From: an uncultured Microbacterium sp.
GTDB lineage: Bacteria > Actinomycetota > Actinomycetes > Actinomycetales > Microbacteriaceae
Direction of reading: 5' to 3'
DNA: 39,010 nt
NCBI GenBank assembly: GCA_913774845.1
Contig: CAJYJO010000024.1
Coordinates: forward strand, 1-39,010
The stretch's first letter is position 1; every line of letters starts with the position of its first letter. Below are positions 5,029 through 38,779 of the stretch, one piece after another. The notes below the pieces were generated by a model, which was not told the DNA's origin, ran no database searches, and worked only from the letters and a program-made list of their open reading frames with translations. Both the position numbers and the translations under genes were made by a program.

Positions 5029-5544
5029 GTGACCCGGCCGCTGCATTCTTCCGAGACGCCCGTGGTCGGCGTCGTGATGGGCTCTGACTCCGACTGGCGC
5101 GTGATGAACGCCGCCAGCGAGGCGCTGACCGAGTTCGGCATCCCGCACGAGGTCGAGGTCGTCTCGGCCCATCGCACCCCCGACAAGCTCATCCGCTACG
5201 GGCGCGAGGCGCGTGAGCGTGGGCTGCGCGCCATCATCGCCGGGGCCGGAGGCGCCGCGCACCTGCCGGGCATGCTGGCATCCGTCACCGCCCTCCCCGT
5301 CATCGGGGTGCCGGTGCAGCTGTCGACCCTCGACGGGATGGATTCGCTCCTGTCGATCGTGCAGATGCCGGCCGGGATCCCCGTCGCGACCGTGTCGATC
5401 AACGGGGCGAAGAACGCCGGTCTCCTCGCCGCGCGGATCCTCGGCAGCTCCGACGCCGCCCTCGCCGAGCGCGTCGAGACGTACGCCCGCGACCTCGAGG
5501 CGCAGGTCGAAGAGAAGAACCGCCGACTGAAGGAGTCGCTGTGA
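5029..5544 (+). CDS. purE: N5-carboxyaminoimidazole ribonucleotide mutase, 171 aa
   Basis: Class I PurE: converts N5-CAIR to CAIR, the step after PurK. Motifs are textbook: GSDSDW (18-23), SAHRTPD (46-52) carrying the catalytic His, and [12 protein letters not shown] (71-82). GTG 5029 gives a normal-length protein; an ATG at 4924 would extend into purK and add residues that do not resemble the family. The stop overlaps the GTG of the LCP gene (5541-5544), which couples purine synthesis to a cell-envelope gene in one transcript. Confidence 0.96.
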
Positions 5545-7004
5545 CCCTTGCCGCGTCGCGCCCTCGGGTGCAGGCGCGGGTGGTCGAGCAGCGGCCCCTG
5601 CGCCACCCAGACGCGTCGTCGAGCGCGGTGATGACGCGCCGCGGCTGGTGGCTCGTCGTGCTCAACTTCCTCGTTCCGGGGTCGGCCCAGGTGCTCGCGG
5701 GCAACCGCCGGCTCGGCCGGTTCGGGCTCGGGGCCACCCTGGCGCTGTGGACCGTGCTCATCGTCGCCGGCCTCGCGGCGCTGCTGTGGCCCAGCGGGTT
5801 GTTCGCTCTGGCGACGGGGTCGTTCATCCCGGACTTCCTGTCGTGGTTCCGTCCGGTGCCCTTGACCCTCGTGCAGATCGCGCTCATCGGTTACGCGGTG
5901 CTGTGGATCGTGCTGACGATCGACACGCTGCGCCTGGTCCGCCTGGTCAAGGTCGGACCGTTCTCCCGCATCGCGATGGCGATCGTCTCGGTGGGGCTGC
6001 TCGTGCTGTCGGGCTCGGGTGCCGCGTGGGCCGCGCAGACGGCGGGCACCACCCGCGACGCGTTCTCGGAGCTGTTCGCCGAGTCGGCACCGGTCGTGCC
6101 CCCCTCCGACGGGTACTACAACATCCTGCTGCTGGGCGCCGACTCCGGCGAGGGGCGCGACTCGATGCGCTTCGACAGCATCTCGGTCGTGTCGATCAAC
6201 GCCGACACCGGCGCGACGACGATCACCGGCATCCCGCGCGACATGCCGCACTTCCCCTTCGCTCCCGGCCCCATGCAGGACGAGTACCCCGACGGGCACA
6301 CCGGCTACGCGAACGCCACCTGCGGATGGGGGAGTGGCATCAACCAGCTCAAGACCGAGGTCGAGGTGTGCCAGGACGGCACCAAGCTGTACCCGAACGC
6401 GAAGGCCGAGGGATCCGGGCCGGGTATCGAGGCGACGAAGGATGCCGCCGAGGGGATCATGGGGATCCAGATCCCGTACTACGTCCTCATCGACATGAAG
6501 GGCTTCGCCGACCTGGTCGACGCGCTCGGCGGCGTCGACATCGACGTGAAGGAGCGCCTGCCCAAGGGCGGCCCCGCCTACGACGGCCAGCCGGTCGACG
6601 ATTGGGCCTTCGGATGGGTCGAGCCCGGCCAGCAGCACATGAACGGTGACACCGCCCAGTGGTACGCCCGCTCGCGCTACACCACGAGCGACTTCGACCG
6701 CATGCGCCGGCAGCGCGAGCTGCAGGAGGCGATCCTCGCCCAGACCACGCCGCAGAACGTGCTCGCTCACTTCCAGGAGGTGGCCAAGGCGGGCACGAAC
6801 ATCGTCGAGACCGACCTGCCGCAGGGGCTCATCGCCCCGACCCTCGTGAACCTCGCCATGAAGGCGAAGGACCAGCCGGTGGGCACCCTCGAGCTGACGC
6901 CGGCGGGCGGGGTCGACGAGTTCGACCCCGACTACGACCAGGTGAAGCAGATGGTGAAGGACAAGCTGCACCCGCCGACCGAGACGGAGGCACCCTCCTC
7001 GTGA
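5541..7004 (+). CDS. LytR-CpsA-Psr (LCP) family protein, 487 aa
   Basis: LCP proteins transfer undecaprenyl-phosphate-linked glycopolymers to peptidoglycan at the outer face of the membrane. The N-terminal 170 residues hold about four membrane segments, the first preceded by [18 protein letters not shown], a TM2-domain-like start. The LCP catalytic domain runs from [12 protein letters not shown] (192) through [13 protein letters not shown] and [13 protein letters not shown] to [18 protein letters not shown] (374-391), with the conserved Asp and Arg residues that bind the polyprenyl pyrophosphate. There is no LytR_C extension. GTG 5541 has Shine-Dalgarno AAGGAG (5530-5535) and overlaps purE by 4 bp. 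Its neighbour is a glycosyltransferase overlapping by another 4 bp, consistent with glycopolymer attachment. Which polymer it attaches is unknown. Confidence 0.92.
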
Positions 7005-8104
7005 CCGTGACCCTGCGCGTCGTGCTGGACCAGCTCGTCGCCCCGACCTCTCCCGACCTCGCCGAAGCCTCCGCGTCGCTTACCGCGGCGCTCGTGGCCA
7101 CCGCCCCGCGCGGCTGCGACGTCTCGGCGATCGTCCCCTCCCCGGGCATTCCCGAGGAGCAGGCGATCGCCGGCCTCACCTCCGAGACCCGTCTGGCCGT
7201 GCGCCGCCGCGAGCTCGCGGCATCCTGGCAGCTCGGTGTCGCCCCCGGCATCGGCAAGGGACTCATCCACTCGCCGACCGCCCTCGCCCCCCTCGTGCGT
7301 CACGACCGCGTCAACGAGACGCACCAGATCGTCGTGACGCTGTGGGAGCTGCGGGCGTGGGAGACCCCCGACGAACTGCCCCGGGCCGAGATTCTGGCGT
7401 GCCGGGCCCTGCTGTCGCGCGTGACCAAGCACGCCGACGCCGTCATCGTCCCCACGCACGCGATGGCCGCGCGACTCGCCGACGTCGCCAAGGCCAAGCT
7501 GGTCAAGAAGGTGCGCGTCATCGAGGGCGCTCCCGCCGCGGGCCTGCGCGTGCCCTCGGATGCCGTCGGCCGACTGCGCGCTCTCGACCTGCCTTCCACG
7601 TCGATCGTGCTCGCCGGCGGCACGGCGGCCTCCGACGGCCTCGAGGCCGCGTTCGCCGCGGTCGTCGCGTCGGGGTGGGACGGCGACGTCGTCATCCTCG
7701 ACGTCCCCGAGGGTGACGAACCCGCCCTCGCCGAGCTCGCCGCGGCAGCGGGAATCCCTGAAACCCGCATCCACGCGCGCGGAGCGCTCGACCGCTGGGA
7801 CCGCGCCGCCGTCCTCTCGCACGCCGCGGCGTTCGTCACCGCGTGCGGCCGCACCGACTGGCCCTGGCGCGCGGTCGACGCGCTCGCCGTCGGCATCCCG
7901 ATCGTCGCCCTCGACACCCCTGTGCACCGCGAGGTGCTGGCGGATGCCGCCGCCTTCGCCGCCGCGGACGACCTCGGCGCCGCCCTCACGCGCGCGCTGG
8001 GGGAAGACGCCGAGCGCCTCCGCGTTCTCGCCGGCGACCGCGCGAAGGGGTTCGCCTGGGAGCTTTCGGCCGAGCGGGTGTGGGCGCTGCACGCGGAGCT
8101 GTGA
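7001..8104 (+). CDS. GT-B fold (GT4-like) glycosyltransferase, 367 aa
   Basis: Predicted cytosolic glycosyltransferase. The C-terminal half is Rossmann-like with the usual late donor-site layout: a short beta-strand and Gly-rich loop SIVLAGGTAASDG, then DALAVGIPIVALDTPVHREVL and AAAFAAADDLGAALTRAL. The acidic pair that normally marks the GT4 EX7E motif is not clean here, so it may be a diverged member. The N-terminal half contains HQIVVTLWELRAWETPDE and HADAVIVPTHAMAARLADVAK, typical of GT4 acceptor domains. The start GTG 7001 overlaps the LCP stop by 4 bp (7001-7004); GTG 7007 is an alternative. Co-translation with LCP points to wall glycopolymer synthesis. Sugar specificity cannot be read. 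Confidence 0.75.
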   Translation: MTVTLRVVLDQLVAPTSPDLAEASASLTAALVATAPRGCDVSAIVPSPGIPEEQAIAGLTSETRLAVRRRELAASWQLGVAPGIGKGLIHSPTALAPLVRHDRVNETHQIVVTLWELRAWETPDELPRAEILACRALLSRVTKHADAVIVPTHAMAARLADVAKAKLVKKVRVIEGAPAAGLRVPSDAVGRLRALDLPSTSIVLAGGTAASDGLEAAFAAVVASGWDGDVVILDVPEGDEPALAELAAAAGIPETRIHARGALDRWDRAAVLSHAAAFVTACGRTDWPWRAVDALAVGIPIVALDTPVHREVLADAAAFAAADDLGAALTRALGEDAERLRVLAGDRAKGFAWELSAERVWALHAEL

Positions 8105-8117
8105 CGCAGCCCGCCCC

Positions 8118-8123
8118 TATGCT
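8118..8123 (+). promoter_or_regulatory. -10 hexamer TATGCT, leaderless-type, for the GT2 gene at 8131
   Basis: TATGCT ends 7 nt before ATG 8131. No Shine-Dalgarno is visible (spacer CGACTCC). The identical hexamer precedes the GT9 gene at 9130. Confidence 0.6.
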
Positions 8124-8130
8124 CGACTCC

Positions 8131-9069
8131 ATGTCTTCACGCGTCGGTATCGTCGTCCGGACCCGGCAGCGGCCGGAGTTCCTCCGCCGGGCGCTCGCCG
8201 ACATCGCCGCACAGACGTTCACCGACTTCCGTGTCGTCGTCGTGAACGACGGGGGAGACCCCGCACCGGTCGAGACGGTCGTCGCCGAGGCCCCGATCGA
8301 CGCCACCTCCGTGCGGCACGTTCCCGCCGGACAGGGCGGCCGCTGCGTCGCGGCGAATCTCGGCGTGCGCGACGCCGGGAGCGAGTACGTCGTGCTGCAC
8401 GACGACGACGACCGGTGGCATCCGGAGTTCCTCGCGCGAACCGTCGCGTGGCTCGACGCTCACCCCGCGGACGCCGCGATCGCGGTGCCCACCGAAATCG
8501 TCTACGAAGAGAAGCGCGGCCGAGACTGGATCGAGGTGGGACGCGCGCCGTTCTGGGCCGGCATGCAGCGGATCTCTCTCAGCGAGATGATGCGCATCAA
8601 CCGGGCCGTACCGATCTCCGTGCTGTACCGCCGCGCGATCCACGACGAGGCGGGCTGGTACGACGAGACCCTCGACGCCGTGGAGGACTGGGACTTCTAC
8701 CTCCGGGTCCTCCGCCGCGCCGGTTTCGGCTTCCTCCCCGGGGAGCCCCTCGCCTTCTGGACGCAGAGACCGGATGCCACCGGCCTCGACGCGAACAGCA
8801 TGTTCGCCCTCACGGAGGCACACGCGAACGACGACGAACGCGTGCGCGACCGTGCGCTGGGGGAGTGGGTGCGGCGCGAGGGAGAGGGCCTGCCGTTGTA
8901 TCTCGCCTCGCTGCAGGACGAGCTCATCGCGCACATCGACCGGCGCTTCGACGAGTTGCACGCCCGCCTGCGCGAAGACGTGCGCGGTGACGTCCGGCGC
9001 GAGATCGACGCGCATCAGCCGGTGATGTCGCGGTTGCGGCGGCTGCGTCGTTCCAGGCGCTCGGGCTGA
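8131..9069 (+). CDS. Family 2 glycosyltransferase with C-terminal coiled-coil tail, 312 aa
   Basis: GT-A fold enzyme. Visible motifs: VGIVVRTRQRPEFLRRALADI at the N-terminus, VVVNDGGD for the nucleotide Asp, the metal-binding HDDDDRWHPEF (90-100), and VEDWDFYLRVLRRAGFG, the ED motif with the catalytic-base position. The last 70 residues (from about 240) are charged and helical with heptad-like spacing (LQDELIAHIDRRFDELHARL) and end in a basic cluster RLRRLRRSRRSG, suggesting a coiled coil and membrane-surface contact. It lies just upstream of the heptose genes and has its own promoter-like hexamer. The acceptor is unknown. Confidence 0.9.
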   Translation: MSSRVGIVVRTRQRPEFLRRALADIAAQTFTDFRVVVVNDGGDPAPVETVVAEAPIDATSVRHVPAGQGGRCVAANLGVRDAGSEYVVLHDDDDRWHPEFLARTVAWLDAHPADAAIAVPTEIVYEEKRGRDWIEVGRAPFWAGMQRISLSEMMRINRAVPISVLYRRAIHDEAGWYDETLDAVEDWDFYLRVLRRAGFGFLPGEPLAFWTQRPDATGLDANSMFALTEAHANDDERVRDRALGEWVRREGEGLPLYLASLQDELIAHIDRRFDELHARLREDVRGDVRREIDAHQPVMSRLRRLRRSRRSG

Positions 9070-9129: not shown

Positions 9130-10377
9130 GTGCCCTCGCCGATGAACCTCTACCGACGAATCCATTGGCAGATCAATGCGATCCGCAAGCGTGACCCTCT
9201 GAGCCCCCGGCTCTTCGCGCGGCTCTTCGGCGCGTGGCGCGCCCGGTCCTGGGATCCGACGACCGTTCCGCGTCGGGTCGTGGTCCTCCGAAGCGACGAG
9301 ATCGGCGATACGGTCACCACGCTCACGCTCCTCGCTGCGATGCGCGCTCACTGGCCAGAAGCCACCATCGATCTGGTCCTCAAGCCCGGCCCGGCCACCA
9401 TGTTCCATGCCGTGCCGACCATCGACCGTGTCGTCGAGTGGACGCCGATCACCGAGGGCTCGGCTCTCAAGAGGCAGGTGCTCACCGCGCGTCAAGCGCT
9501 GCGGCGTTTCGGTGTGCGCGGGTACGACCTGGCGGTCCTGCCGCGGTGGGATTTCGATGACACTCCGATGCGCTACCTCGCGGTCGCATCGCGCGCGCGC
9601 TCCGTCGTCGGCTTCGTCCCCGTCTCCGATCGCGAACCTGTCTGGTTCGGGCCGCAGGTCGAGTTGCTGACCGACGTCATCTCGCGGGGCAGTCGTCCCC
9701 TGTTGACCGTCGCGCAGCTTCGACGCGTGGCGGAGTATCTCGGAGTGCCCTGGCTTGATGAGCCTCGTCCTGCCGTCGGCACGGGACTCTTCGACGCCGC
9801 GGATTCTCGCGCAGCCGAGCGGCACGGCGATCTCGGCTCAGACCCGGGTCTGGTCGTCGGGTTGGGTATCGGGGCCCGCGACGCGAAGCGACAGTGGCCC
9901 CTCCACGATCTCTCGGAGACTGTCATGACCCTGGCCCGGCAACGCCCGGTCACGGTGCAGATCCTCGGCGGGAAGGTGGACGTCGAACGCGCCGCTGAAC
10001 TTGCCAGTTCGCTCGAGAGCGACGGCGTGCGCGTCGTCGATGTCGCCGGGAAACTGAGCCTCAGCGAAAGCGCTGCGGCGATCGCGCGGTGCGATGTCTT
10101 CATCGGTAACGACTCGGGCCTCCAGCACATCGCCAGCAGCCTCGATCTGCCCACTGTCGTGGTGACGTGCCACCCAGCGGACGGGTCGCCGTGGAGCGAT
10201 AATGCTCCCGAACGCTTTGGACCGTGGTCGTCGCGCAACGCGCTGCTCCAGCCCGCTCACTCCGCCGACGGGTGCACCGACGAGTGCGTCGCCACCGAAC
10301 CTCACTGCATCCGAGCGGTACGCCCGACCGAGGTGGCGCAGGCCGTCGAGGACCTGCTCCGGCAATCGCGCGACTGA
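9130..10377 (+). CDS. Family 9 glycosyltransferase, heptosyltransferase-like, 415 aa
   Basis: GT9 enzymes in LPS synthesis transfer heptose from ADP-heptose. The N-terminal signature VVLRSDEIGDTVTTLTLL places R-x-D-x-x-G-D at residues 54-60. The C-terminal domain shows IARCDVFIGNDSGLQHIASS with GNDSGLQH at 326-333, the family donor-site motif. A Cys-rich C-terminal stretch (CTDECVATEPHCIRAV) follows, as in several GT9 members. I use GTG 9130, supported by the -10-like hexamer. It is followed 64 bp later by hldE and then gmhA, the genes that make its presumed donor, so heptosyltransferase is the best reading. GT9 enzymes using other donors exist, so specificity is inferred from context. Confidence 0.85.
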   Translation: MPSPMNLYRRIHWQINAIRKRDPLSPRLFARLFGAWRARSWDPTTVPRRVVVLRSDEIGDTVTTLTLLAAMRAHWPEATIDLVLKPGPATMFHAVPTIDRVVEWTPITEGSALKRQVLTARQALRRFGVRGYDLAVLPRWDFDDTPMRYLAVASRARSVVGFVPVSDREPVWFGPQVELLTDVISRGSRPLLTVAQLRRVAEYLGVPWLDEPRPAVGTGLFDAADSRAAERHGDLGSDPGLVVGLGIGARDAKRQWPLHDLSETVMTLARQRPVTVQILGGKVDVERAAELASSLESDGVRVVDVAGKLSLSESAAAIARCDVFIGNDSGLQHIASSLDLPTVVVTCHPADGSPWSDNAPERFGPWSSRNALLQPAHSADGCTDECVATEPHCIRAVRPTEVAQAVEDLLRQSRD

Positions 10378-10383
10378 GTCCGC

Positions 10384-10389
10384 TACGCT
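10384..10389 (+). promoter_or_regulatory. -10-like hexamer TACGCT upstream of hldE
   Basis: TACGCT lies just after the GT9 stop and about 50 nt before ATG 10442, allowing a leader of about 45 nt. No good -35 is visible. The identical hexamer occurs before the GT2 gene at 38885. Confidence 0.35.
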
Positions 10390-10441
10390 CTTTCGGTCCG
10401 GTTTCACCGCCGGCCCACCCGCCCAAGGTCTGGATACAGCC

Positions 10442-11926
10442 ATGTCTGCACTCGCGTCGATCACCCCCCAGCACGTGCTGGGGTTCGAGGGAGCCCGGGT
10501 CGTCGTGATCGGCGACGCAATGCTCGACCGGTACGTCGACGGAGCGGTCGAGCGCATCTCGCCCGAGGCTCCCATCCCTGTGCTCCGCGTCCGTCAAGAC
10601 CGCAGCGTCGCCGGTGGCGCCGCGAACGCGGCGATGAACATCGCCGCCCTGGGCGTGCGAACGACGCTCGTCTCGGCCTGGGCCGACGACGATGCCGGCG
10701 CCGAACTCGAGCGCTTGCTCGCCGACGCCGGGGTGACGGCCGCGCGAGTGAGCCGCGGCGATGCGCCGACCATCGAGAAGCTCCGCGTGGTCGCGGGGGC
10801 GCAGCAGATCGTGCGGGTTGATCGCGAAGACACCTCGGCTCTGGATGCCACCGGCATCGACGCCGCGTTCGAGGCGGTGCGCGCGGCTCTCGGCGACGAC
10901 ACGTCGGCCACTGCCGTGGTGGTGTCGGACTACGCCAAGGGGCTGCTGGGCGACGAGCTCGTGGGCCGCGTCATCGATCATGCGCGGGAGCTCGGCATCC
11001 CGGTGGTCGTCGACCCCAAGTCGAGCGACATCAGCAAGTACCGCGGTGCCACCGTTGTCAAACCCAATTTCGCCGAGGCGCTGCAGATGTCGGGTCTTCG
11101 CGCCGAGAGGCCCGACGAGCCCACACTCGACGCCATTGCCGAGCACCTGCTGGTCGACGGCATCGGCGCGCTCGCGGTGTCGCTCTCGGCGGTCGGGGTC
11201 GAAGTCATCGAGCCCGCCGCGCGGACCCGCATCCCTACGCGGGCTCGGCTCGTCGCCGATGTGTCGGGAGCGGGCGACTCGATGATCGCCGGCATCGCGG
11301 CGGGCCTGGCCGCGGGACTCACGGTCCTGCAGTCGGTGCAGGTGGGGAACATGGCCGCGGGCATCGCGTGCGGCCGGCCCGGCACCGCGGTCGTCTCGAG
11401 TGCCGACCTGCTCACAGCCCTCCTGGTGGAGTCTTCGCCCGAGGAGCGCCCCGGGACGATCGAAGACTGGGAGGAACTGGCCCAGCTCGTTGCCGTCGAG
11501 AAGCAGGCGGGTAAGACCGTCGTCTTCGCCAACGGTGTGTTCGACCTGCTGCACGCCGGGCACGTGTCGCTGCTGCGTGAAGCGCGGTCGCTCGGCGACG
11601 TGCTCGTCGTGGGGGTCAACTCCGACGAGTCGACCGCACGGCTCAAGGGTCCGTCGCGCCCGCTGCAGCCGCAGAACGACCGGATGAGCGTTCTCGAGGC
11701 CGTGCGGTACGTCGATTTCGTCACGGTGTTCGGCGAGGACACGCCCCGCGAACTCATCCGCACCATCCAGCCCGACGTCATCGTCAAGGGCTCCGACTAC
11801 CGCCCGGATCAGGTCGTTGGCGGAGAGGATGCCAAGGCCTGGGGCGGCCGCGTCCATATCGTGAACCTGCTGGACGGGGTGTCGACCACGCGCCTGTCGC
11901 AGGGCCAGCAGGTCCGCCGCGGCTGA
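10442..11926 (+). CDS. hldE: Bifunctional D-beta-D-heptose 7-phosphate kinase / 1-phosphate adenylyltransferase, 494 aa
   Basis: Two fused enzymes of the ADP-heptose pathway. Residues 1 to about 325 are a PfkB/ribokinase-type kinase: VVVIGDAMLDRYVDG near 20-34, SVAGGAANAAMNIAALG for the substrate Gly-rich motif, and DVSGAGDSMIAGIAAG (from 273) with the catalytic Asp of the GAGD anion hole. Residues 350-494 are a nucleotidyltransferase: VVFANGVFDLLHAGH (360-374) with the H-x-G-H signature, VGVNSDESTARLKG, and the C-terminal GVSTTRL. Kinase and adenylyltransferase are separate proteins in some species; here the fusion is intact, with the E. coli HldE domain order and near-normal length. It is followed 28 bp later by gmhA. 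The adenylyltransferase class indicates an ADP- rather than GDP-linked heptose, based on family knowledge. Confidence 0.95.
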   Translation: MSALASITPQHVLGFEGARVVVIGDAMLDRYVDGAVERISPEAPIPVLRVRQDRSVAGGAANAAMNIAALGVRTTLVSAWADDDAGAELERLLADAGVTAARVSRGDAPTIEKLRVVAGAQQIVRVDREDTSALDATGIDAAFEAVRAALGDDTSATAVVVSDYAKGLLGDELVGRVIDHARELGIPVVVDPKSSDISKYRGATVVKPNFAEALQMSGLRAERPDEPTLDAIAEHLLVDGIGALAVSLSAVGVEVIEPAARTRIPTRARLVADVSGAGDSMIAGIAAGLAAGLTVLQSVQVGNMAAGIACGRPGTAVVSSADLLTALLVESSPEERPGTIEDWEELAQLVAVEKQAGKTVVFANGVFDLLHAGHVSLLREARSLGDVLVVGVNSDESTARLKGPSRPLQPQNDRMSVLEAVRYVDFVTVFGEDTPRELIRTIQPDVIVKGSDYRPDQVVGGEDAKAWGGRVHIVNLLDGVSTTRLSQGQQVRRG

Positions 11927-11954
11927 CGCCGATCGGACCGGGAAGGAAGACAGC

Positions 11955-12536
11955 ATGGGTGTTCTGCAGGAGAACCTGCTCGAGAACGTACGCCGCCTGG
12001 CGGCGCTCGCCCAAGACGAGGCGTTCGGGGCGGCCTTCGATCGCGCCGCTGCGGTAATGGTCACCTCGCTCCGTCAGGGCGGCACGCTACTGGCGTGCGG
12101 CAACGGCGGGTCGATGACCAATGCGCAGCATTTCGCCGAAGAACTCACCGGCCGCTTTCGCGGGAACCGCCCCCCGCTGCGGGCGATGGCGATCTCCGAT
12201 CCCTCGCACCTCACCTGCGTCGCGAACGACTACGGCTACGAGTACGTCTTCTCGAAGTTCGTCGACGCCTTCGCCCGCCCCGGCGACGTGCTGCTTGCGC
12301 TGTCGACGAGCGGCAAGTCACCGAACGTCCTGCGGGCGGCCGAGGCCATGAAGGCCGCCGGCGGCATCGTCGTGGCTTCCTCCGCCACGGCGCAGTCGCC
12401 GCTGGGCGAGATCGCCGACGTCGTGATCGAACTCGGCGCCAGCCGCTGGGCGGACCGCGTGCAAGAGGCGGAGCTCGTCGTCATCCATTCGCTCATGCAA
12501 GCGATCGAGGATTCCTTCGGCTATTCCACGGATTGA
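11955..12536 (+). CDS. gmhA: Phosphoheptose isomerase (sedoheptulose-7-phosphate isomerase), 193 aa
   Basis: SIS-domain enzyme that converts sedoheptulose-7-phosphate to D-glycero-D-manno-heptose-7-phosphate, the entry step to heptose nucleotides. Visible motifs: LLACGNGGSMTNAQHFAEEL from about residue 45, ending in TGRF, STSGKSPNVLRA for the sugar-phosphate loop, and EAELVVIHSLMQAIED with the catalytic-type His near the C-terminus. Normal length (E. coli GmhA is about 192 aa). ATG 11955 follows a clear Shine-Dalgarno GGAAGGA (11941-11947). Its 3' end overlaps the convergent gmhB by 16 bp. Confidence 0.95.
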   Translation: MGVLQENLLENVRRLAALAQDEAFGAAFDRAAAVMVTSLRQGGTLLACGNGGSMTNAQHFAEELTGRFRGNRPPLRAMAISDPSHLTCVANDYGYEYVFSKFVDAFARPGDVLLALSTSGKSPNVLRAAEAMKAAGGIVVASSATAQSPLGEIADVVIELGASRWADRVQEAELVVIHSLMQAIEDSFGYSTD

Positions 12537-13132
12537 TCCTGACGGGGCGAACGTGTCGGCGTCGCTATCGTCGACGCGAACGCTGCGAGGGCCGGAAAGG
12601 TCTCGTGAGCGTGGACATCATGTGTGGCGCCGATCCTCACTGTGTGACATCCGCCGGTGATGACACTGAGCCGGTGCCCCATCTCGATATCCGAATCGGT
12701 GTCGCCCACCATGACGGAGCGGGCTGCATCCAGCTCGGGATGTGCAGAGAGGTAACGCAGCGCCATCCCCGGTTGCGGCTTTCGACACGCACATGCCGCG
12801 TCTGCCATATGTGGGCAGACTTCGATCGCGTCGATGCGGCCGCCCGCTTCGACGACCGCCTCGCGCATACGCGCGTGAATGGATGAGAGATCGGACGGCG
12901 TCATGAGCCCCTTCGCGATTCCCTGCTGATTGGTGACCACGACGATCCGGGGCGCCCACGTGGATAGGGTGACGAGCGCGTCCAGCGCCCCCGGAAGGAA
13001 TTCGAACTCCTCCCATGACCGGACGTAGCCGTGCATGATTCGTGAATTGATGACGCCGTCGCGGTCGAGGAAGAGACACCAGGCTCCCCGATCGATGGAG
13101 TCCGCGGCGGTGGGCATCGACGCACTGGTCAT
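12521..13132 (-). CDS. gmhB: D-glycero-beta-D-manno-heptose-1,7-bisphosphate 7-phosphatase (GmhB), 203 aa
   Basis: HAD-superfamily histidinol/GmhB-type phosphatase that removes the 7-phosphate from heptose-1,7-bisphosphate between the two HldE steps. Catalytic motif FLDRDGVIN has the nucleophile and acid/base Asp at 23 and 25; VVTNQQGIAKG carries the motif-II Thr; CRKPQPGM has motif-III Lys; MVGDTDSDIE is motif IV. The structural zinc ligands are present as C106, H108, C114 and C116 (CPHMADAACAC). The ATG at 13132 has a -10-like hexamer 7 nt upstream; longer in-frame reading to 13645 overlaps the neighbouring gene and is not family-like. It is on the opposite strand from the other heptose genes and shares 16 bp with gmhA. 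A general histidinol-phosphatase-like role is possible but unlikely beside gmhA and hldE. Confidence 0.92.
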   Translation of the reverse strand: MTSASMPTAADSIDRGAWCLFLDRDGVINSRIMHGYVRSWEEFEFLPGALDALVTLSTWAPRIVVVTNQQGIAKGLMTPSDLSSIHARMREAVVEAGGRIDAIEVCPHMADAACACRKPQPGMALRYLSAHPELDAARSVMVGDTDSDIEMGHRLSVITGGCHTVRIGATHDVHAHETFPALAAFASTIATPTRSPRQDQSVE

Positions 13133-13223: not shown

Positions 13224-15005
13224 ATGCTCGTGCGATTCTGCACGTCTACACGGCGGCGGAGCGAGCTGCTGATCGCTGCCGCCGTCATCGTCATCATCAC
13301 CGTGATGGTCGCCGGAGGGTCCTTCTTCGATCGGGATGATCTGTTCTTCGCGGAGTACTTCCAACTCAATCCGCCTTCGGTCGATGCCCTGACACGGTCG
13401 TGGTTCGGCCACCTCATGCCCGGGTACATCGCGAGCGTGATCGCCTTTCTCACCCTCTTCGGCTTGTCGTGGCCCGTGGCTCTCGTCCTGACGGCTGCCA
13501 TCCACACGGGCGCCTTCGTGGCCCTCGTTCGTTGCCTCGATGCTGTTCTCGGCCCCGTGCGGCTCAATGTCATCGCGGGCGTGGCGTTCTCTCTCTCACT
13601 GGGGCCGATGATGGTCCGTTTGTGGTGGGCGGCGACATTGAACAACTTCCTGGCGCTGGCGCTGGGCCTGGCGGTGCTGGGATGCGCTACCCGCTGGGTC
13701 GTGCGGCGTCGCGCGCGCCATCTCGTTGCGGCCCTCCTTTTGTACGCGCTGGCGCTGACGATGAGCGAGAAGAACCTTCTCTTCTCTCTTCACATCGCTG
13801 CCTGGTTCGTGCTGGTCGTCTGGCGCGGACTCTCCGCCCGCAGTCGCATCGCGGAGATCGTGCGCGCGTGGCCTCTCTGGATCGGGCTCGTTCTGCTGTC
13901 CCTGATCGACGTGATCGCCTTCCTGCGCGGTCCGTACTTGCAAGAGTCCGGTACGTCGCCGGGTTTGGGGACCTCGATCCGATTCGTCGCTCACAACATC
14001 CTCGGTGGCCTCTTCCCATCGCTGTTCGGGATCGACATGGCGGATCAACCCGCGTCGTTCACGGACCCGCGCGTCGTCGTGAGTAGCGCGCTCGTGGCGG
14101 CTTTCGTTGTGTGGACCATCGTTCGCACGCGCGCGAACGTCGGTGTATGGGTCTTCGCTTTGGTGGCCGTCTCGGCGAATGCGGCGGTTCTCTCGCGTCG
14201 CGCGGATCTTCTTGGCGAAGCCGGAGGGCGTCAGCTCCGATATCTCCTCGAAAGCTCGGCGCTGTTGTGGCTGGCCATTGGGGTCGCCGCCGTGTTGGCA
14301 ATGTCGGTATCGCGGGCCACCCCCTCCGATACCCGTCGCCGAGACCGATCCGCCGATCGCCGTCGCCGCGTGCTTCGAACCGTCGGCGGTGGTCTCGCGG
14401 CGGGTCTCATCTTGTTCTCAGCATGGTCCTGGAGCAATGGAGTGCTCCGTGCGATCGGCTCGAGCGGAGGATACGCGGCACGCGAATGGATCGAGACGCT
14501 CCGGACGGAGCTCCCGAATCCTCTCCCCGCAGCCCTCATCGACACACCTTTGTCGAGCGAGTTCGCAATCCCGCAGCTGCACCCCTACGACATGGTCGCC
14601 CCGGTGCTTCCAAGTCTGGGTTGGACGGACGTCCGAACCACCAATGTTCTGGAGGGTGCCTGGACCGTCGGCGAGGACGGTCGCGCTGGGCCCGCCGTGC
14701 TCGCTTCGCCGGACGTCCAGTTCTCCGGAAGCCGATGCAGCGACGGTTCGACGTTGCTCCCGGTCCCGGAAGCTCATACGCGCGGGCGAACCTTCATTGT
14801 GCTGGACTTCTCGCGAAGCGAGGGGGCGTCGGTGGGACTCCAGTTCAGTGGAGGCTCCGTGAGCGTCGACCTCGATGCCTCTCAGGGACGAATTGCCGTC
14901 TATCTGCCGAACCCGGTCGACGGCGATCTCGTCGTCGACCCTCACGGCGCTCCGCTGTGCGTCGACGCGATCACCGCGGCAGACGTCGTCCCCGCGTCGA
15001 ATTGA
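13224..15005 (+). CDS. Polytopic membrane protein, GT-C-like, 593 aa
   Basis: I do not recognise a named family with certainty. About ten hydrophobic helices fill residues 15-420, followed by a soluble, probably extracytoplasmic, C-terminal domain (about 430-593) rich in beta-type sequence with two Cys (SGSRCSDGS and APLCVDA) likely disulfide bonded. Right after TM1 is FFDRDDLFFAEYF (34-46), an acidic loop in the position where GT-C lipid-dependent glycosyltransferases carry their catalytic Asp/Glu. This suggests a polyprenyl-phosphate-sugar dependent glycosyltransferase or an O-antigen-ligase-like role; inference only. It is divergent from gmhB and 95 bp upstream of the lipoprotein/LGFP operon. 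Confidence 0.7.
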   Translation: MLVRFCTSTRRRSELLIAAAVIVIITVMVAGGSFFDRDDLFFAEYFQLNPPSVDALTRSWFGHLMPGYIASVIAFLTLFGLSWPVALVLTAAIHTGAFVALVRCLDAVLGPVRLNVIAGVAFSLSLGPMMVRLWWAATLNNFLALALGLAVLGCATRWVVRRRARHLVAALLLYALALTMSEKNLLFSLHIAAWFVLVVWRGLSARSRIAEIVRAWPLWIGLVLLSLIDVIAFLRGPYLQESGTSPGLGTSIRFVAHNILGGLFPSLFGIDMADQPASFTDPRVVVSSALVAAFVVWTIVRTRANVGVWVFALVAVSANAAVLSRRADLLGEAGGRQLRYLLESSALLWLAIGVAAVLAMSVSRATPSDTRRRDRSADRRRRVLRTVGGGLAAGLILFSAWSWSNGVLRAIGSSGGYAAREWIETLRTELPNPLPAALIDTPLSSEFAIPQLHPYDMVAPVLPSLGWTDVRTTNVLEGAWTVGEDGRAGPAVLASPDVQFSGSRCSDGSTLLPVPEAHTRGRTFIVLDFSRSEGASVGLQFSGGSVSVDLDASQGRIAVYLPNPVDGDLVVDPHGAPLCVDAITAADVVPASN

Positions 15006-15099: not shown

Positions 15100-15651
15100 A
15101 TGGACCAATCTGCAGGTATCGGCGATAGAGTACGTTATTGTCGGCGAATTCACCGTGCATCCGCCTCGCTGCTCCTCGGGTGCGCGCTGCTGGTCCTGAC
15201 CTCGTGTGCGACTCCTTCCGCCACTGTCGCGGTGAGCCCGCCCCCGACGGCGACAACTCCTTCTCCGACCGCATCGAGTTCCTCTCCGACAGAGCCGGCG
15301 CCGACGGATTCGCCTATCCCCATCCCCACCGATCCCGCGTTGCCTGATCCGTCGCCCACAGCTCAAGGCGACACGAAGGTCACGATTGTCAACTCCGGAG
15401 CCGATGGGCGCGTGATCTCGGCCTCGGGGCTCGTCACCGGTGCGACCGGCTCGGATGGTGTCTGTACCTTGACCGCGACCTCTGAGGGACTGACCCTGTC
15501 GGGGCAGATTGACGCGCAGTCGACACCCGCGGCGGTCAACTGCGGGCTGATCGAGATCACGGCGCCGACGGGACGGTGGACGATGACGCTCACCTACCGT
15601 GTGGGGACCTCAGCCACCGTCTCCGAGCCAGTGACGGTGGATCAACCGTGA
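15100..15651 (+). CDS. Putative secreted lipoprotein, Pro/Thr/Ser-rich, 183 aa
   Basis: Lipoprotein signal: a charged n-region (RVRYCRRIHR), a hydrophobic stretch SLLLGCALLVL and lipobox LTSC with Cys at residue 36, so the mature protein should be diacylated on the outer membrane leaflet. Residues 37-88 are a Pro/Ser/Thr/Ala-rich tether (many SPT-type triplets), a likely wall spacer and possible O-glycosylation region. Residues 90-183 form a small Ig-like beta domain (TIVNSGADGRVISASGLVTG ... VCTLTATSEGLTLSGQ ... WTMTLTYRVGTSA) with two Cys. Function unknown. Its stop overlaps the GTG of the LGFP gene (15648-15651), so the two are probably partners. An upstream in-frame ATG at 15064 would also be possible. 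Confidence 0.8.
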   Translation: MDQSAGIGDRVRYCRRIHRASASLLLGCALLVLTSCATPSATVAVSPPPTATTPSPTASSSSPTEPAPTDSPIPIPTDPALPDPSPTAQGDTKVTIVNSGADGRVISASGLVTGATGSDGVCTLTATSEGLTLSGQIDAQSTPAAVNCGLIEITAPTGRWTMTLTYRVGTSATVSEPVTVDQP

Positions 15652-18347
15652 GCCGGGTGGCGGCCCGTCCCTCCTCCATCGGTCGACTCGGGGCGGTGGT
15701 CGTCGGCCTGTTCGCCGTCATCGCCGGCCTGCTCGTGGCCATCGCGCCAGCGACGTCTCCTGCCGCTGTGGCGGCCGATGCGGCGGACTTCCAGGATGGT
15801 TACCTCATCTCGGACCAGAACTTCTTCGACTCCCGGTCCATGACCGTCGAGGAGGTGCAGGCGTTCCTCAACTCCAAAGTCGCGAATTGTCGATCCGGCA
15901 GCGCAATGCCGTGCTTGAAGGATTACTCCGCGCAGGACACACCCGCTTTGGCGGCGAACAACTATTGTTCGGCATTCCCCGGTGGCACCATGAGTGCTGC
16001 GCGGCTTATCGTTACCGTCTCGCAAGTGTGCGGGATCAGCCCAAAGGTCATTCTCGTCATGCTCCAGAAGGAGCAGGGACTTATCACGGACACGTCGCCG
16101 TCGCGCGGTCAGTACAGTGCGGCCCTAGGGCAGGGATGTCCTGATGGGGGCCAGGCTTGTGATCCGGCATACGCTGGTTTCTTCTACCAGATCTATGGCG
16201 CTGCCCGACAGTTTCAGATCTACATCAAGTTCCCAAAATCCTTCAGCTATCAGCTGGGATGGAACAACATCCTCTACCAAGCGTCGCCTCCGGACACGAA
16301 CGGTGTGTGCGGTACCAAGCGGGTCAACATTCAGAACGATGCGACCAGGGCTCTCTACATCTACACGCCGTACACGCCGAACAAGGCCGCGCTCGACAAT
16401 CTCTACGGTACGGGCGATTTCTGCTCCGCATACGGTAATCGCAACTTCTGGCGCCTTTACACCGACTGGTTCGGCAGCCCCGTCACGGAACAGGTGACCG
16501 GCGAGTATGCGACGGTGTGGAGGTCGCTGGGAGGTGCCGAAGGCATGCTGGGCTCCCCGACGAGCGCGGTCGTCTGCATCAACAGCCTGTACTGCCAGCA
16601 GTCTTTCCGTGGCGGCACGATTTTCTGGTTTCCGGGCCGAGGCGTCTTCGGTGTGCCCACGATCGTGGAGACCATGTGGCGCAATCTCGGATTCACGGGC
16701 GGAGCGGCGGGTTATCCGACGGGCACGCCATCCTGCAACCCCGACGGCACTTGCGTGCAATCCTTTGGCGGGGGCATCATCGCTGCGGATGCATCGGGTG
16801 GTTCGCTCGTGGGCCGTCGCATCGAGTCGGCATGGCGGGCCGCCGGCGGCATCTCGGTGGGTGGCGCCCGCGGACCCGAACTGTGTTCGGCCGCGGGTGA
16901 CAACTGCGCCCAGCAGTTCGCGCGTGCGGCATTCTTCGTTTCAACTGCGCGAACCCTCTCGGTGACCGGCGCCATCTTCGGCGCCTGGAGCGCGGCCGGC
17001 ATGTCGAGCGGTCCGATGGGATTCCCGACCGCAAATGCGGAGTGCGGCTCGCCAGGGTGCACCCAGGCGTTCGACGGTGGCCTGATCGTCTCGGCTGGAG
17101 ACAGAGCCCAGACCGTCCCGATGCCAATCGCTCGGAAATTCCTCGCGATCGGGGGGCTGGCCACGACTGGTGGTCCGGTTTCCGCCGCATCCTGTCCGAC
17201 CTCTGGGCAGTGTTCCCAGCGGTTCGATTTTGCTCGGATCGATACGTTCCCTGACAGGCCGGCACTGGCCACGACGAAGGGTTTCCTCGATGCATGGAGC
17301 TCGTACGGGTTCGAGACCGGCCTGTTGAAGTTCCCCAAAGCCGAAGCGACCTGCACCTCGGTGACCTGTACCCAACCGTTCGAGGGCGGTCTTCTGGTGG
17401 GGACCCCTGAAGCTGGCGTCGTCGCGGTGTTCGGCGCGTATCTCGACGCGTGGAACGCGGCAGGGGGACCCACCGGATCGCTGGGTCTGCCGACGGGGCG
17501 TGACACGTGCAACGGTTCGAATTGCTCCCAACCCTTCCAAAAAGGTGTTCTTGTCTGGACTCCGACGTACGGCGCGGTGACAGTCTCGAGCGCGTTCCTG
17601 GCACCGTGGCAGGCGAAGGGCGGGGGAGCCGGTTTCCTTGGTGCGCCGAAGAGCAACGCGACGTGCTCCTCCGCCACTTGCCGTCAGGTCTTCGAAGGCG
17701 GACTGCTGGTCGGGACTCCCGCTGCTGGTGTCGTGGCCGTGTTCGGGGCGTACCTGGACGCATGGAATGCCGCTGGCGGAGAAACCGGATCCCTCGGGCT
17801 GCCCACGGGACCGGATACGTGCAATGGGAAGAATTGTGCACAGCCATTCCAACGCGGAGTTCTGGCTTGGACACCGACCTACGGCGCCGTGACGGTTTCG
17901 AGCTGGTTCCTGGCGCCTTGGCAAGCGAAAGGGGCGGGGGCAGGCTTCCTGGGCGCCCCCAAATCCAACTCGGCATGCACCTCGGTGACCTGCAGCCAGA
18001 TCTTCGAGGGCGGGCTGCTGGTCGGAACACGCTCCGCGGGAGTTGTCGCTGTGTTCGGGGCGTACTTGGATGCGTGGAACGCCGTCGGCGGTCCGACGGG
18101 GTCGCTGGGGTTGCCCGCGGGGCCCGACTCCTGCAACGGCTCGTGGTGTTCGATGCGATTCGACAAGGGAGCGATTATCTGGACACCTGCGGCGGGCGCA
18201 ATCGTCGTTTCGCCTCCTGTCTTCGCCAAGTGGGACGCCGCGGGCGGCCCCTCCGGGTCTTATGGGCTCCCCATCGCGCCGGCGACGAAGAGTGGCAACA
18301 CCGTCTCTCAAAGATTCCAACGCGGAACGGTTTCGGCGACGGAATGA
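15648..18347 (+). CDS. Secreted LGFP-repeat protein with N-terminal lysozyme-like domain, 899 aa
   Basis: Signal peptide of about 45 residues (hydrophobic AVVVGLFAVIAGLLVAIAP, then AVAADA). Residues 50-280 form a domain with a Glu in LQKEQGLI (E142) in the context of an alpha-helical lytic-transglycosylase-like fold, including AALGQGCPDGGQACDP and FYQIYGAARQFQIY; hydrolase activity is inference. Residues 283-899 contain about 12 LGFP-type repeats of roughly 50-54 aa (repeats 6-11 exactly 52), with W near the start, a G-x-L-G-x-P core, a C-x(3-5)-C pair and a closing F-x-G-G stretch. The last repeat lacks the Cys pair. LGFP repeats in actinobacterial wall proteins are thought to hold proteins to the envelope. 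GTG 15648 overlaps the lipoprotein gene and ATG of the next GT overlaps its stop, so it is embedded in a coupled run. No transmembrane anchor or sortase signal is seen. Confidence 0.88.
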   Translation: MSRVAARPSSIGRLGAVVVGLFAVIAGLLVAIAPATSPAAVAADAADFQDGYLISDQNFFDSRSMTVEEVQAFLNSKVANCRSGSAMPCLKDYSAQDTPALAANNYCSAFPGGTMSAARLIVTVSQVCGISPKVILVMLQKEQGLITDTSPSRGQYSAALGQGCPDGGQACDPAYAGFFYQIYGAARQFQIYIKFPKSFSYQLGWNNILYQASPPDTNGVCGTKRVNIQNDATRALYIYTPYTPNKAALDNLYGTGDFCSAYGNRNFWRLYTDWFGSPVTEQVTGEYATVWRSLGGAEGMLGSPTSAVVCINSLYCQQSFRGGTIFWFPGRGVFGVPTIVETMWRNLGFTGGAAGYPTGTPSCNPDGTCVQSFGGGIIAADASGGSLVGRRIESAWRAAGGISVGGARGPELCSAAGDNCAQQFARAAFFVSTARTLSVTGAIFGAWSAAGMSSGPMGFPTANAECGSPGCTQAFDGGLIVSAGDRAQTVPMPIARKFLAIGGLATTGGPVSAASCPTSGQCSQRFDFARIDTFPDRPALATTKGFLDAWSSYGFETGLLKFPKAEATCTSVTCTQPFEGGLLVGTPEAGVVAVFGAYLDAWNAAGGPTGSLGLPTGRDTCNGSNCSQPFQKGVLVWTPTYGAVTVSSAFLAPWQAKGGGAGFLGAPKSNATCSSATCRQVFEGGLLVGTPAAGVVAVFGAYLDAWNAAGGETGSLGLPTGPDTCNGKNCAQPFQRGVLAWTPTYGAVTVSSWFLAPWQAKGAGAGFLGAPKSNSACTSVTCSQIFEGGLLVGTRSAGVVAVFGAYLDAWNAVGGPTGSLGLPAGPDSCNGSWCSMRFDKGAIIWTPAAGAIVVSPPVFAKWDAAGGPSGSYGLPIAPATKSGNTVSQRFQRGTVSATE
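17274..18209 (+). repeat. Three tandem 312-bp units inside the LGFP gene
   Basis: Units start at 17274, 17586 and 17898, exactly 312 bp (104 aa) apart, each two LGFP repeats: one ending in (P/A/R)(A/S)AGVVAV and one ending in GAVTV or GAIVV. The recurring phrase VFGAYLDAWNA begins at 17427, 17739 and 18051. DNA identity is partial, with synonymous changes, so the duplication is not brand new but is clear at protein level. Confidence 0.85.
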
Positions 18348-20683: not shown

Positions 20684-21807
20684 CCGCGGGGCGGACCCCG
20701 CGGATCCTTCTCGCCGTCACCTTCTACAACGGTCGTGAGTTCGCGCATCGCACGCTGGAGTCGATATCGCGTCTCGGCCACGCGGGTTTCGAGCTCGATG
20801 TGCTGGTTCTTGACGACTGCAGCCCGGAGCCGGGGTTCAGCGAGTGGCTTGAGACCGTCTCGCACGACTTTGGCGCTACCTACTATCGGTCTCCCCGAAA
20901 TGTGGGCATCCCCAGGAACGTGAACATCGGGTTGGCGACGGCTCAACGCCTCGGTTACGACTACGTCGTCGTCTCCAATTCTGATGTCATCTACGCACGG
21001 GATGCCGTCGAGGTCCTGTTCGACGTCATCACGTCAGCGCCGAACGCCGCCTCCGCCACCGCCTGGTCCACCAACGTCGATCCTTACTCGCTGCCCAATG
21101 GCTCGGACATGTTCATCGAGACGCAGGAAGTGACGGACGCCATCGGTGAGGCGCTTTCGGCGCGATTCGACAGGCAATCGCTTGACATCCCGGCAGGTAT
21201 CTCGTTCGCGATGATCGTACCGGTGACCGTCCTGTCACGCGTCGGGCTCATGGACCCCGTCTTCGGGCGCGGATACGGTGAGGAATCCGATTGGTCGGCC
21301 CGCGCCACGAATGCGGGATTCCGCCACCTGCTCGCTCAAGGCGCCTTCGTCTATCACGCCGGTCGGGGCTCGACGCTCGCGGCGGGCGTCGTCTCGCAGA
21401 GCGATATCGCCGACTGGAGCAACCAGCACATCGTTAATCATCGCTCCCCGATGTTCCGCTGGAGCGTCGACGGGTTCCTGCGATCGCACGTCCTCGAGGA
21501 CGCGCAGATCGTTGCAGTGAGGACTCTGATCGAGGCGGCCGCCCAGCGGTGGGGATACTGCGTCATCGATGGAGCACGCGATTGGGCCGACCTCGATGAG
21601 CACGTCGTCAGCGTCGCCATCCGTTCGCAGGCCAACGAGCTCTGCACTGCGACGTGGTGCGGATTCACCGTCGAGATCGATACCGATTCGATCGATGTAA
21701 TCGGTGCCATCAGAGATTTCTTCGGCGGAGCCGAGCCGGTGTATACGAACATCCCGGGAGCGACGTGGGAGGGTGCGGAGCGATACGGGTATCCGCTCAG
21801 CCTGTGA
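20680..21807 (+). CDS. Family 2 glycosyltransferase, 375 aa
   Basis: GT-A enzyme resembling rhamnosyl/galactofuranosyl-type GT2: ILLAVTFYNGREFAHRTLESI, VLVLDDCSPE, VVVSNSDVIYARD with NSD at 100-102 in the metal-site position, IPAGISFAMIVPV, and GRGYGEESDWSARATNAGFR, carrying the ExDW acceptor/base motif. A C-terminal region of about 110 residues (from 265) is unique and not assignable. The GTG start overlaps the coiled-coil gene and the stop overlaps the acyltransferase start (21804-21807). Function is inferred as one step in a surface glycan. Confidence 0.88.
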   Translation: MTAGRTPRILLAVTFYNGREFAHRTLESISRLGHAGFELDVLVLDDCSPEPGFSEWLETVSHDFGATYYRSPRNVGIPRNVNIGLATAQRLGYDYVVVSNSDVIYARDAVEVLFDVITSAPNAASATAWSTNVDPYSLPNGSDMFIETQEVTDAIGEALSARFDRQSLDIPAGISFAMIVPVTVLSRVGLMDPVFGRGYGEESDWSARATNAGFRHLLAQGAFVYHAGRGSTLAAGVVSQSDIADWSNQHIVNHRSPMFRWSVDGFLRSHVLEDAQIVAVRTLIEAAAQRWGYCVIDGARDWADLDEHVVSVAIRSQANELCTATWCGFTVEIDTDSIDVIGAIRDFFGGAEPVYTNIPGATWEGAERYGYPLSL

Positions 21808-23050: not shown

Positions 23051-23917
23051 ATGTCCGGTCAGGTTCTCATCACCGGGGCGGGGGGATACGTCGGCCCCCA
23101 CGTCGTCCGGGCGGTCGCGGACCTCGGGTATCAGCCCGTCGCGGTGTCGCGTCGTCCTCCGGAGGCCGAGCTCGACGAACGCGCTCTCTTCGTCGAGGCC
23201 GACGTGCTCGCACCGGACTTCTTGATCGAGTCGATTGCTCCGGCCGCCGAGGTGTCCGCCGTGATCCATCTCGCCTGGCAGGACGGCTTCGTGCACAATG
23301 CCCGGTCGCATATCGAGAGCTTGTCCGCTCATCATGGTTTTCTCGCGGGAGCGGCTGAGGTCGGGATCGAGCGGATCGCCTCACTCGGAACCATGCATGA
23401 GGTGGGGTACTGGGAGGGCGCCGTCGACGAGGACACCCCCACCAACCCTGTCACCCTTTACGGCATCGCCAAAGACGCCCTCAGGCGCTCGACGGCTCTC
23501 ACCGTGGCGCCCGTCGCCGAGTACATCTGGCTGCGCGCCTTCTACATCCTCGGCGACGACCGTCGAAATCGATCCATCTTCGCCAAGATCCTCGATGCGG
23601 CGGATCGAGGCGATACTGAGTTCCCCTTCACGACGGGCCGCACGCTCTACGATTTCATCGACGTCGCGGAACTTGGGAAGCAAATCGCCGTAGCGTCGCT
23701 GTCGAACGGGGTGACCGGCATCGTCAACGTGTGCAGCGGCAAGCCCGAATCGCTCGCAAGCCGGGTCGAACGCTTCATTCAGGAAAACGATCTGAGTATT
23801 CGTCTGCGTTACGGCGCCTTCCCCGACCGGGCCTACGACTCTCCGGGGATCTGGGGCGACTCGACGCGCATCGACGCGTTGATGAAAGGGTCTTCGCTCG
23901 GGAGGGACACGCGATGA
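23051..23917 (+). CDS. Extended SDR sugar-nucleotide dehydratase/reductase (4-ketoreductase candidate), 288 aa
   Basis: NAD(P)-binding GxxGxxG variant TGAGGYVG (8-15), catalytic Y137-x-x-x-K141 in LYGIAKDALRRS, and a plausible catalytic Ser/Thr in SLGTMHEVG. Cofactor fold and length fit extended SDRs acting on dTDP- or UDP-sugars. It lacks the usual RmlD opening (G-x-x-G-Q-L-G) and I do not see RmlD tail motifs. It is directly upstream of an RmlC-type epimerase with a 4-bp overlap, so it most probably reduces dTDP-4-keto-L-rhamnose, giving dTDP-L-rhamnose or dTDP-6-deoxy-L-talose. Shine-Dalgarno GAGAGG precedes ATG 23051. Confidence 0.82.
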   Translation: MSGQVLITGAGGYVGPHVVRAVADLGYQPVAVSRRPPEAELDERALFVEADVLAPDFLIESIAPAAEVSAVIHLAWQDGFVHNARSHIESLSAHHGFLAGAAEVGIERIASLGTMHEVGYWEGAVDEDTPTNPVTLYGIAKDALRRSTALTVAPVAEYIWLRAFYILGDDRRNRSIFAKILDAADRGDTEFPFTTGRTLYDFIDVAELGKQIAVASLSNGVTGIVNVCSGKPESLASRVERFIQENDLSIRLRYGAFPDRAYDSPGIWGDSTRIDALMKGSSLGRDTR

Positions 23918-24477: not shown

Positions 24478-24491
24478 CATGCCGGAGTCGT

Positions 24492-25361: not shown

Positions 25362-25364
25362 TGA

Positions 25365-26429
<1,065 letters not shown>

Positions 26430-27704: not shown

Positions 27705-27707
27705 GAG

Positions 27708-31081: not shown

Positions 31082-31131
31082 CCGCCGACGCGTGGCCCGG
31101 CCGTCGGGCGGGGAGGCGGCGATGACGCGTC

Positions 31132-33521: not shown

Positions 33522-33522
33522 G

Positions 33523-35439: not shown

Positions 35440-35476
35440 ACGATTTCTTCTCCGTCTGCGGTCATTTCGACACGCC

Positions 35477-35540: not shown

Positions 35541-38779
<3,239 letters not shown>

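What the first reader, a model, noticed from the sequence alone, without database searches (positions are those of the whole stretch)
9130..13132. Complete ADP-heptose pathway (GT9, HldE, GmhA, GmhB) in a presumed Gram-positive actinobacterium
The GT9 gene, fused HldE, GmhA and GmhB cover every step from sedoheptulose-7-phosphate to ADP-D-glycero-beta-D-manno-heptose plus a candidate transferase. Catalytic motifs and the GmhB zinc ligands are intact. This pathway is best known from Gram-negative LPS; in Gram-positives heptose is more often described via GDP-heptose, or in a few antibiotic clusters. Next to LCP, GT and export genes it suggests a heptose-containing surface glycan. ADP-heptose is also a known ALPK1 agonist, so such a strain might be sensed by that route (inference).
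Basis: partly seen in the sequence, partly recalled or inferred. Interest (0 to 1): 0.85.

Follow-up and report, generated by a model that had tools for sequence, protein, structure and literature searches.

The report
Gram-negative-type heptose genes in Microbacterium
A Gram-positive bacterium carries, inside its cell-wall sugar-coat gene cluster, a full set of genes for making and attaching heptose, a sugar best known from the outer coat of Gram-negative bacteria; the pathway is already known from other actinobacteria, but its use as a swappable part of a wall-glycan locus seems undescribed and is easy to test.

Summary
The four genes are real and intact: GT9 9142-10377, fused HldE 10442-11926, GmhA 11955-12536 and, convergent, GmhB 12521-13132. 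The host is a Microbacterium. [quoted passage not shown] Of 366 Microbacterium genomes 12 carry this HldE type, and the same 12 carry the GT9 orthologue; eleven relatives keep the order purE-LCP-GT4-GT2-GT-GT9-HldE-GmhA. In 20 of 20 fetched regions from HldE-lacking Microbacterium the same purE-LCP-GT4 anchor leads into other glycan genes. The heptose set thus behaves as an exchangeable cassette of a wall-glycan locus (inference). HldE and GmhA lie with Gram-negative sequences, away from two other HldE lineages of the same family; transfer is likely, donor unresolved. No heptose has been measured.

The parts
9142..10377 (+). GT9 heptosyltransferase-like glycosyltransferase, 411 aa
10442..11926 (+). 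[quoted passage not shown] motif LLDGVSTT (no STTR5 arginine)
   Evidence: only TIGR02199 match of the genome
11955..12536 (+). GmhA: sedoheptulose-7-phosphate isomerase, 193 aa
   Evidence: phmmer 169 bits to 1x94 and 159 bits to 2i22, 97 bits to DiaA; only TIGR00441 match of the genome, below cut-off
12521..13132 (-). GmhB: heptose-1,7-bisphosphate 7-phosphatase (HAD, zinc loop CPH...CAC), 203 aa
   Evidence: top model is the broader histidinol-phosphatase domain subfamily
5541..7004 (+). LCP (LytR-CpsA-Psr) glycopolymer transferase, anchor gene of the locus
   Evidence: PF03816 86.7 bits; next to purE in 20 of 20 fetched HldE-lacking regions
7001..8104 (+). GT4-type glycosyltransferase (start codon not determined)
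   Evidence: PF13692 27.9 bits, cut-off 27; conserved
8101..9069 (+). GT2 glycosyltransferase (start codon not determined)
   Evidence: PF00535 67.2 bits; in 11 of 11 cassette-bearing Microbacterium relatives
13224..15005 (+). 593 aa membrane-type protein without a family match; possible GT-C-type transferase (inference from a poor model)
   Evidence: no family; helices then strands in a low-confidence model, pLDDT 44.3
15576..18347 (+). Protein with LGFP repeats (7 stretches); start codon not determined
   Evidence: PF08310 241.1 bits
18398..20410 (+). Large glycosyltransferase, 40% identical to the 750 aa GT that sits between GT2 and GT9 in relatives; start not determined
   Evidence: PF13524
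20680..21807 (+). GT2 glycosyltransferase
21654..23039 (+). Acyltransferase family 3
23051..26429 (.). Probable dTDP-rhamnose genes (names from Pfam class and neighbourhood): SDR epimerase 23051-23917 (+), RmlC-like 23731-24477 (+), RmlA-like nucleotidyltransferase 24492-25400 (-), RmlB-like 25422-26429 (+)
26478..28619 (-). ABC exporter pair: Wzt-like ATPase with Wzt_C 26478-27704, Wzm-like permease 27708-28619
28752..35478 (-). Glycosyltransferases 28752-29831, 31132-32328, 32325-33740; unassigned 29828-31384; DUF6541 protein 33523-35478
35604..38779 (+). UDP-galactopyranose mutase (Glf) 35604-36740 and AT3-SGNH acyltransferase 36719-38779

Best explanation
[quoted passage not shown] The glycan is exported by the Wzm/Wzt-like pair and joined to the wall by the LCP protein. 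The heptose genes are an exchangeable cassette in the variable part of the Microbacterium wall-glycan locus, probably acquired from a Gram-negative-type source. Shown here: gene identity by homology, predicted fold of the GT9, conserved synteny, co-occurrence, other genes at the same site in HldE-lacking species, tree placement. Inferred: enzyme activities, sugar configuration, attachment site, export route, transfer and its donor.
Against: No measurement of heptose or ADP-heptose. Heptose-specific cut-offs are missed except by the adenylyltransferase, and the top model for GmhB is a broader subfamily. The GT9 could transfer to something else. In G132 (another genus) the cassette is not beside purE-LCP in the 17 kb fetched, though beside LGFP and glf. 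The window lacks the 750 aa GT that relatives have between GT2 and GT9. AU tests do not reject the Gram-negative rows as a group apart (p 0.434) or all actinobacterial rows but L103 as the other side (p 0.397), so nesting within Gram-negatives is not shown; one search warns that long branches meet at the window's group. No sharp compositional break at the cassette.
Confidence: 0.72

Rival explanations
1. The enzymes make ADP-heptose for protein glycosylation: the GT9 works like the autotransporter heptosyltransferases (TibC/Aah) and modifies a surface protein such as the neighbouring LGFP-repeat protein.
Confidence: 0.12
2. The set serves a secondary metabolite, as in the septacidin and hygromycin B producers.
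For: This is a described use of ADP-heptose in actinobacteria (PMC10221265 passage; PMC11461863); a Streptomyces plasmid has a GT9 near a gene that matches GmhA and HldE together.
Against: No secondary-metabolite synthase among the 28 window ORFs scanned; LCP and ABC-exporter context; glycan genes at the same site in relatives; the two Streptomyces rows lie in another HldE lineage.
Confidence: 0.06
3. The enzymes act on another sugar phosphate, so the product is a nucleotide sugar other than ADP-D,D-manno-heptose.
For: Kinase, GmhA and GmhB below heptose-specific cut-offs, GmhB best on a histidinol-phosphatase-type subfamily; GmhB zinc loop shorter than in E. coli.
Against: Motifs intact; GmhA scores 159-169 bits to GmhA against 97 to DiaA; HldE and GmhA lie with the E. 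coli enzymes in trees; every step plus a heptosyltransferase fold lie together.
Confidence: 0.1

Closest known systems
Gram-negative LPS-core ADP-heptose pathway (GmhA-HldE-GmhB-HldD, WaaC/WaaF), E. coli K-12
   Same: Same catalytic functions up to ADP-D,D-heptose, with the fused kinase/adenylyltransferase; HldE 43-45% identical to E. coli and Klebsiella; GT9 has the heptosyltransferase fold.
   Different: No HldD over cut-off and no LpxC in 13 of 13 carriers; genes clustered with LCP and ABC-export glycan genes.
Actinobacterial ADP-heptose for septacidin and hygromycin B (Tang et al. 2018, cited in PMC10221265; original not held)
   Same: ADP-heptose made by an actinobacterium.
   Different: There it feeds antibiotics; here the genes sit in a wall-glycan locus.
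Tridomain isomerase/kinase/nucleotidyltransferase NDP-heptose synthetases of actinobacteria (Tang et al. 2022; title only, in the reference list of PMC10948575; not held)
   Same: Same activities.
   Different: Here GmhA is a separate gene and HldE is didomain.
Heptose clusters of Microbacteriaceae with two HldE genes (e.g. L038; lineages A and B, this work)
   Same: HAD phosphatase, GT9, GmhA and HldE together in the same bacterial family.
   Different: Two other HldE lineages, about 33-41% identical to the window's over most of the protein; other neighbours (aldehyde dehydrogenase, SDR).
Rhamnose-containing, LCP-anchored cell-wall polysaccharides of Gram-positive bacteria (recalled class; listing only)
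   Same: LCP, rml-type genes, Wzm/Wzt-type exporter, variable glycosyltransferases.
   Different: I recall none described with ADP-heptose genes inside.

Membership tests
[quoted passage not shown]
   12 best of 15 PDB sequences are phosphoheptose isomerases, DiaA follows at 97 bits; H59, E63, Q170, H178 present, ligand roles recalled; NCBIfam cut-offs not reached; tree 97/94 with E. coli GmhA, long branches flagged
[quoted passage not shown]
   GAGD, HAGH, STT motifs; TIGR02199 over cut-off; TIGR02198 and NF008454 best of their kind but below cut-off
[quoted passage not shown]
   FLDRDG and CPH...CxC invariant in 7 of 7 aligned rows including E. coli; heptose-specific NCBIfam cut-offs not reached
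[quoted passage not shown]
   no assay
LPS core heptose pathway | HldD epimerase to the L,D form | tested here: not met
   weak SDR matches in 13 of 13 carriers, none over cut-off; best 98.3 bits against 274.6
LPS core heptose pathway | Lipid A pathway (LpxC) | tested here: not met
   0 of 13 carriers
GT9 heptosyltransferases | GT9 family profile and fold | tested here: met
GT9 heptosyltransferases | Use of ADP-heptose as donor | not testable with these tools
   no assay; co-occurrence with this HldE type in 12 of 12 genomes
STTR5 broad-NTP heptose nucleotidyltransferases | Arginine in (F/L)XXGRSTT | tested here: not met
   LLDGVSTT in 13 of 13 cassette HldE; motif from PMC11573728
Actinobacterial tridomain NDP-heptose synthetases | GmhA domain fused to HldE | tested here: not met
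   separate genes
LCP-anchored wall glycopolymer locus | LCP transferase, glycosyltransferases and a polymer exporter in one locus | tested here: met
   attachment to the wall itself not testable

The most novel reading that the evidence does not exclude
Some Microbacterium species build D-glycero-D-manno-heptose into an LCP-anchored, ABC-exported cell-wall polysaccharide with enzymes acquired from a Gram-negative-type source, and this heptose set is one of several interchangeable cassettes at one serotype-like locus of the genus.
Probability: 0.55. Interest if true: 0.6.

Novelty: new variant of a known kind. Interest (0 to 1): 0.45.

Why it matters
A 2008 survey of known bacterial glycan structures found L-glycero-D-manno-heptose confined to Gram-negative bacteria (PMC2543016, passages). 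If these Microbacterium species put the D,D form into their walls, heptose is a wall sugar on both sides of the Gram divide, and the wall-glycan locus of the genus becomes a Gram-positive counterpart of an O-antigen locus with readable cassettes. It also gives a genetic marker for Gram-positive strains that may make ADP-heptose, a known ALPK1 agonist (PMC11573728).

Tried and rejected
A first pattern test suggested that one HldE lineage lacked the kinase motif GAGD; an alignment of 15 rows showed GAGD present and my pattern too strict, so the idea of a dead kinase was dropped. The 13224-15005 protein was modelled from three sequences, but the model is poor (pLDDT 44.3) and was not searched. 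The AU tests did not let me claim that the window's HldE lies inside the Gram-negative group, only on its side of the deep split. The trees lean on few Gram-negative rows (12 for HldE, 4 for GmhA), from plasmid records and E. coli K-12, so no donor can be named. The HldE tree is a quick search, with odd letter make-up in 14 rows and one long branch flagged; the GmhA tree is flagged for long branches that meet at the window's group. Rows dropped: of 121 distinct HldE rows 93 were used, 42 of 70 Microbacteriaceae rows of the other lineages being kept (every second one, plus those of seven loci); of 55 GmhA rows the three over 220 aa were left out. Second HldE copies in genomes with two or more were not all fetched. 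Of the 30 purE places found, in 30 genomes of my choice among the 337 HldE-lacking ones, 20 were fetched; matches there were counted at E up to 1e-15 over at least 40% of the query. GmhB was not sought genome-wide.

Literature: ten searches listed no paper whose title or abstract start is about heptose in Microbacterium walls; five of them held more papers than were listed. Of the four papers that hold Microbacterium, cell wall and heptose I opened passages of one, PMC10892373: it reports heptose in a mixed biofilm, not in Microbacterium.

Full report
Profile and PDB sequence matches agree on all four. They are divergent members: only the adenylyltransferase domain passes its heptose-specific NCBIfam cut-off (183.5 against 181.5); HldE as a whole, the kinase domain, GmhA, GmhB and the GT9 do not, whereas E. 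coli K-12 HldE, GmhA and GmhB do. For GmhB the top model is the broader histidinol-phosphatase domain subfamily, though PDB sequences put GmhB (109 bits) before HisB (70.5 bits). Catalytic and metal-site residues are present (the roles of the GmhA residues are recalled).

The host is Microbacterium. The nearest HldE in named genomes are those of M. testaceum NS220 and M. enclense NIO-1002 at 86%, and unnamed same-genus contigs have the same lengths as the named contigs. The window is a whole 39,010-base contig of a 3.37 Mb assembly, 99.99% complete.

The genome has one match each for GT9, the GmhA model and the heptose nucleotidyltransferase, all inside this 4 kb. It has no HldD over cut-off and no LpxC; the same holds for all 13 carriers examined. 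[quoted passage not shown] The nucleotidyltransferase motif is LLDGVSTT in 13 of 13 cassette HldE, without the arginine that marks NTP-promiscuous enzymes in PMC11573728; ATP preference is expected (inference; PMC11461863 notes that promiscuity can occur without that arginine).

How common is it? By the nucleotidyltransferase domain at E up to 1e-30: 68 of 398 genomes of the family (65 over the cut-off), 29 of 366 of the genus (27), 54 of 396 of the phylum sample (48); the samples overlap. So the pathway is a minority trait, not an oddity. Of the 29 Microbacterium carriers 12 have the window's type (the other 11 at 74-88% identity to the window's); the best HldE match of the remaining 17 is 36-44% identical, in two of them over a part only.

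Three HldE lineages stand out in a quick tree of 93 fused proteins. The window's type (13 rows: 12 Microbacterium and G132 of another genus) is one clade at 100 and lies with the 12 Gram-negative rows and one actinobacterial row (L103) at 97. Two other lineages (27 and 40 rows) hold the remaining actinobacterial rows. In the family sample 55 of 68 carriers have two nucleotidyltransferase matches, many about 5 kb apart, others 10 kb or more. GmhA agrees: the 13 window-type rows join E. coli, Massilia and Janthinobacterium at 97/94, away from 35 other actinobacterial rows (with long branches flagged). Transfer from a Gram-negative-type source is the simplest reading. It is not proven: AU tests do not reject the Gram-negative rows as a group of their own (p 0.434) or all actinobacterial rows but L103 as the other side (p 0.397); Gram-negatives were thinly sampled; base composition shows no sharp break, so any transfer is probably old.

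Context suggests the function. The neighbours are an LCP transferase, GT4 and GT2 enzymes, then a membrane-type protein, an LGFP-repeat protein, more glycosyltransferases, acyltransferases, rml-type genes, a Wzm/Wzt-like pair with Wzt_C, DUF6541, and UDP-galactopyranose mutase. In 11 of 11 Microbacterium relatives with this HldE the order purE-LCP-GT4-GT2-(750 aa GT)-GT9-HldE-GmhA is kept, with GmhB convergent in 10 and cut by a contig end in the eleventh. The window lacks the 750 aa GT at that place and has a 40% identical one further on, at 18398-20410. In 20 of 20 regions fetched from HldE-lacking Microbacterium genomes, purE, LCP and GT4 are in the same order, in four of them with GT4 2.5-3 kb further on; none matches any of the four heptose genes; other glycan genes follow, with wzm and/or wzt in 19 of 20. 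A search of all 366 genomes with the GT9 finds orthologues (66-100%) in the same 12 genomes and one 36% match in G750, a few kb from that genome's low-scoring HldE. Fisher's test, with that match left out and relatedness ignored, gives 1e-22. Heptose synthesis and transfer thus travel together as a cassette in a variable wall-glycan locus. In G132 the cassette is elsewhere, near LGFP and glf.

Known and new. ADP-heptose in Streptomyces is in print for septacidin and hygromycin B (PMC10221265, passages). [quoted passage not shown] the second adds that few studies show what manno-heptose does in its producers, naming LPS, capsules, protein heptosylation and natural products. A paper on actinobacterial tridomain synthetases exists (title seen; not held). 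A 2008 structure survey found L-glycero-D-manno-heptose confined to Gram-negatives (PMC2543016, passages). What ten searches (listings, not all papers listed) did not show is a heptose-containing wall glycan of Microbacterium or such a cassette. Hence: new variant of a known kind, moderately interesting, and directly testable by wall sugar analysis.

ALPK1: ADP-D,D-heptose is an agonist according to PMC11573728; whether a Gram-positive strain would release it into host cells is open and was not tested.

Noticed in passing
L038 526-11590 (G296:C11, same genus) and similar loci in the family: Another kind of heptose cluster with two divergent fused HldE genes, GmhA, HAD phosphatase, two GT9 genes, an SDR and an aldehyde dehydrogenase; one HldE carries a GRSTT motif, the other lacks the glycine (DHSTT). 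Why two HldE are kept is unexplained.
   Followed up: partly
G711, G747, G531 and G132: Genomes with the window-type HldE and, elsewhere, one or two further HENase matches of other types, so perhaps two heptose systems in one cell.
   Followed up: no
G185 (L053), G577 (L135), G493 (L136), G750:C10: A further, lower-scoring HENase type (142-153 bits); in L053 and L135 it lies beside GmhA, with the nucleotidyltransferase match upstream of the kinase match and a GT9 32-33% identical to the window's. Separate genes or reversed fusion was not determined.
   Followed up: no
window 13224-15005: 593 aa protein without a family match; homologues at 54-68% lie near the cassette in 5 of 11 Microbacterium relatives, in either orientation.
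   Followed up: partly
L140, L141 (Massilia and Janthinobacterium plasmids): GmhA-like SIS proteins lie among heavy-metal resistance genes, with no other heptose gene annotated in the 16.5 and 12.6 kb shown.
   Followed up: no
L142 5914-7875 (Streptomyces pFRL5): GmhA and HldE matches fall in one gene, near a GT9, a carbamoyltransferase and an epimerase, on a linear plasmid.
   Followed up: no
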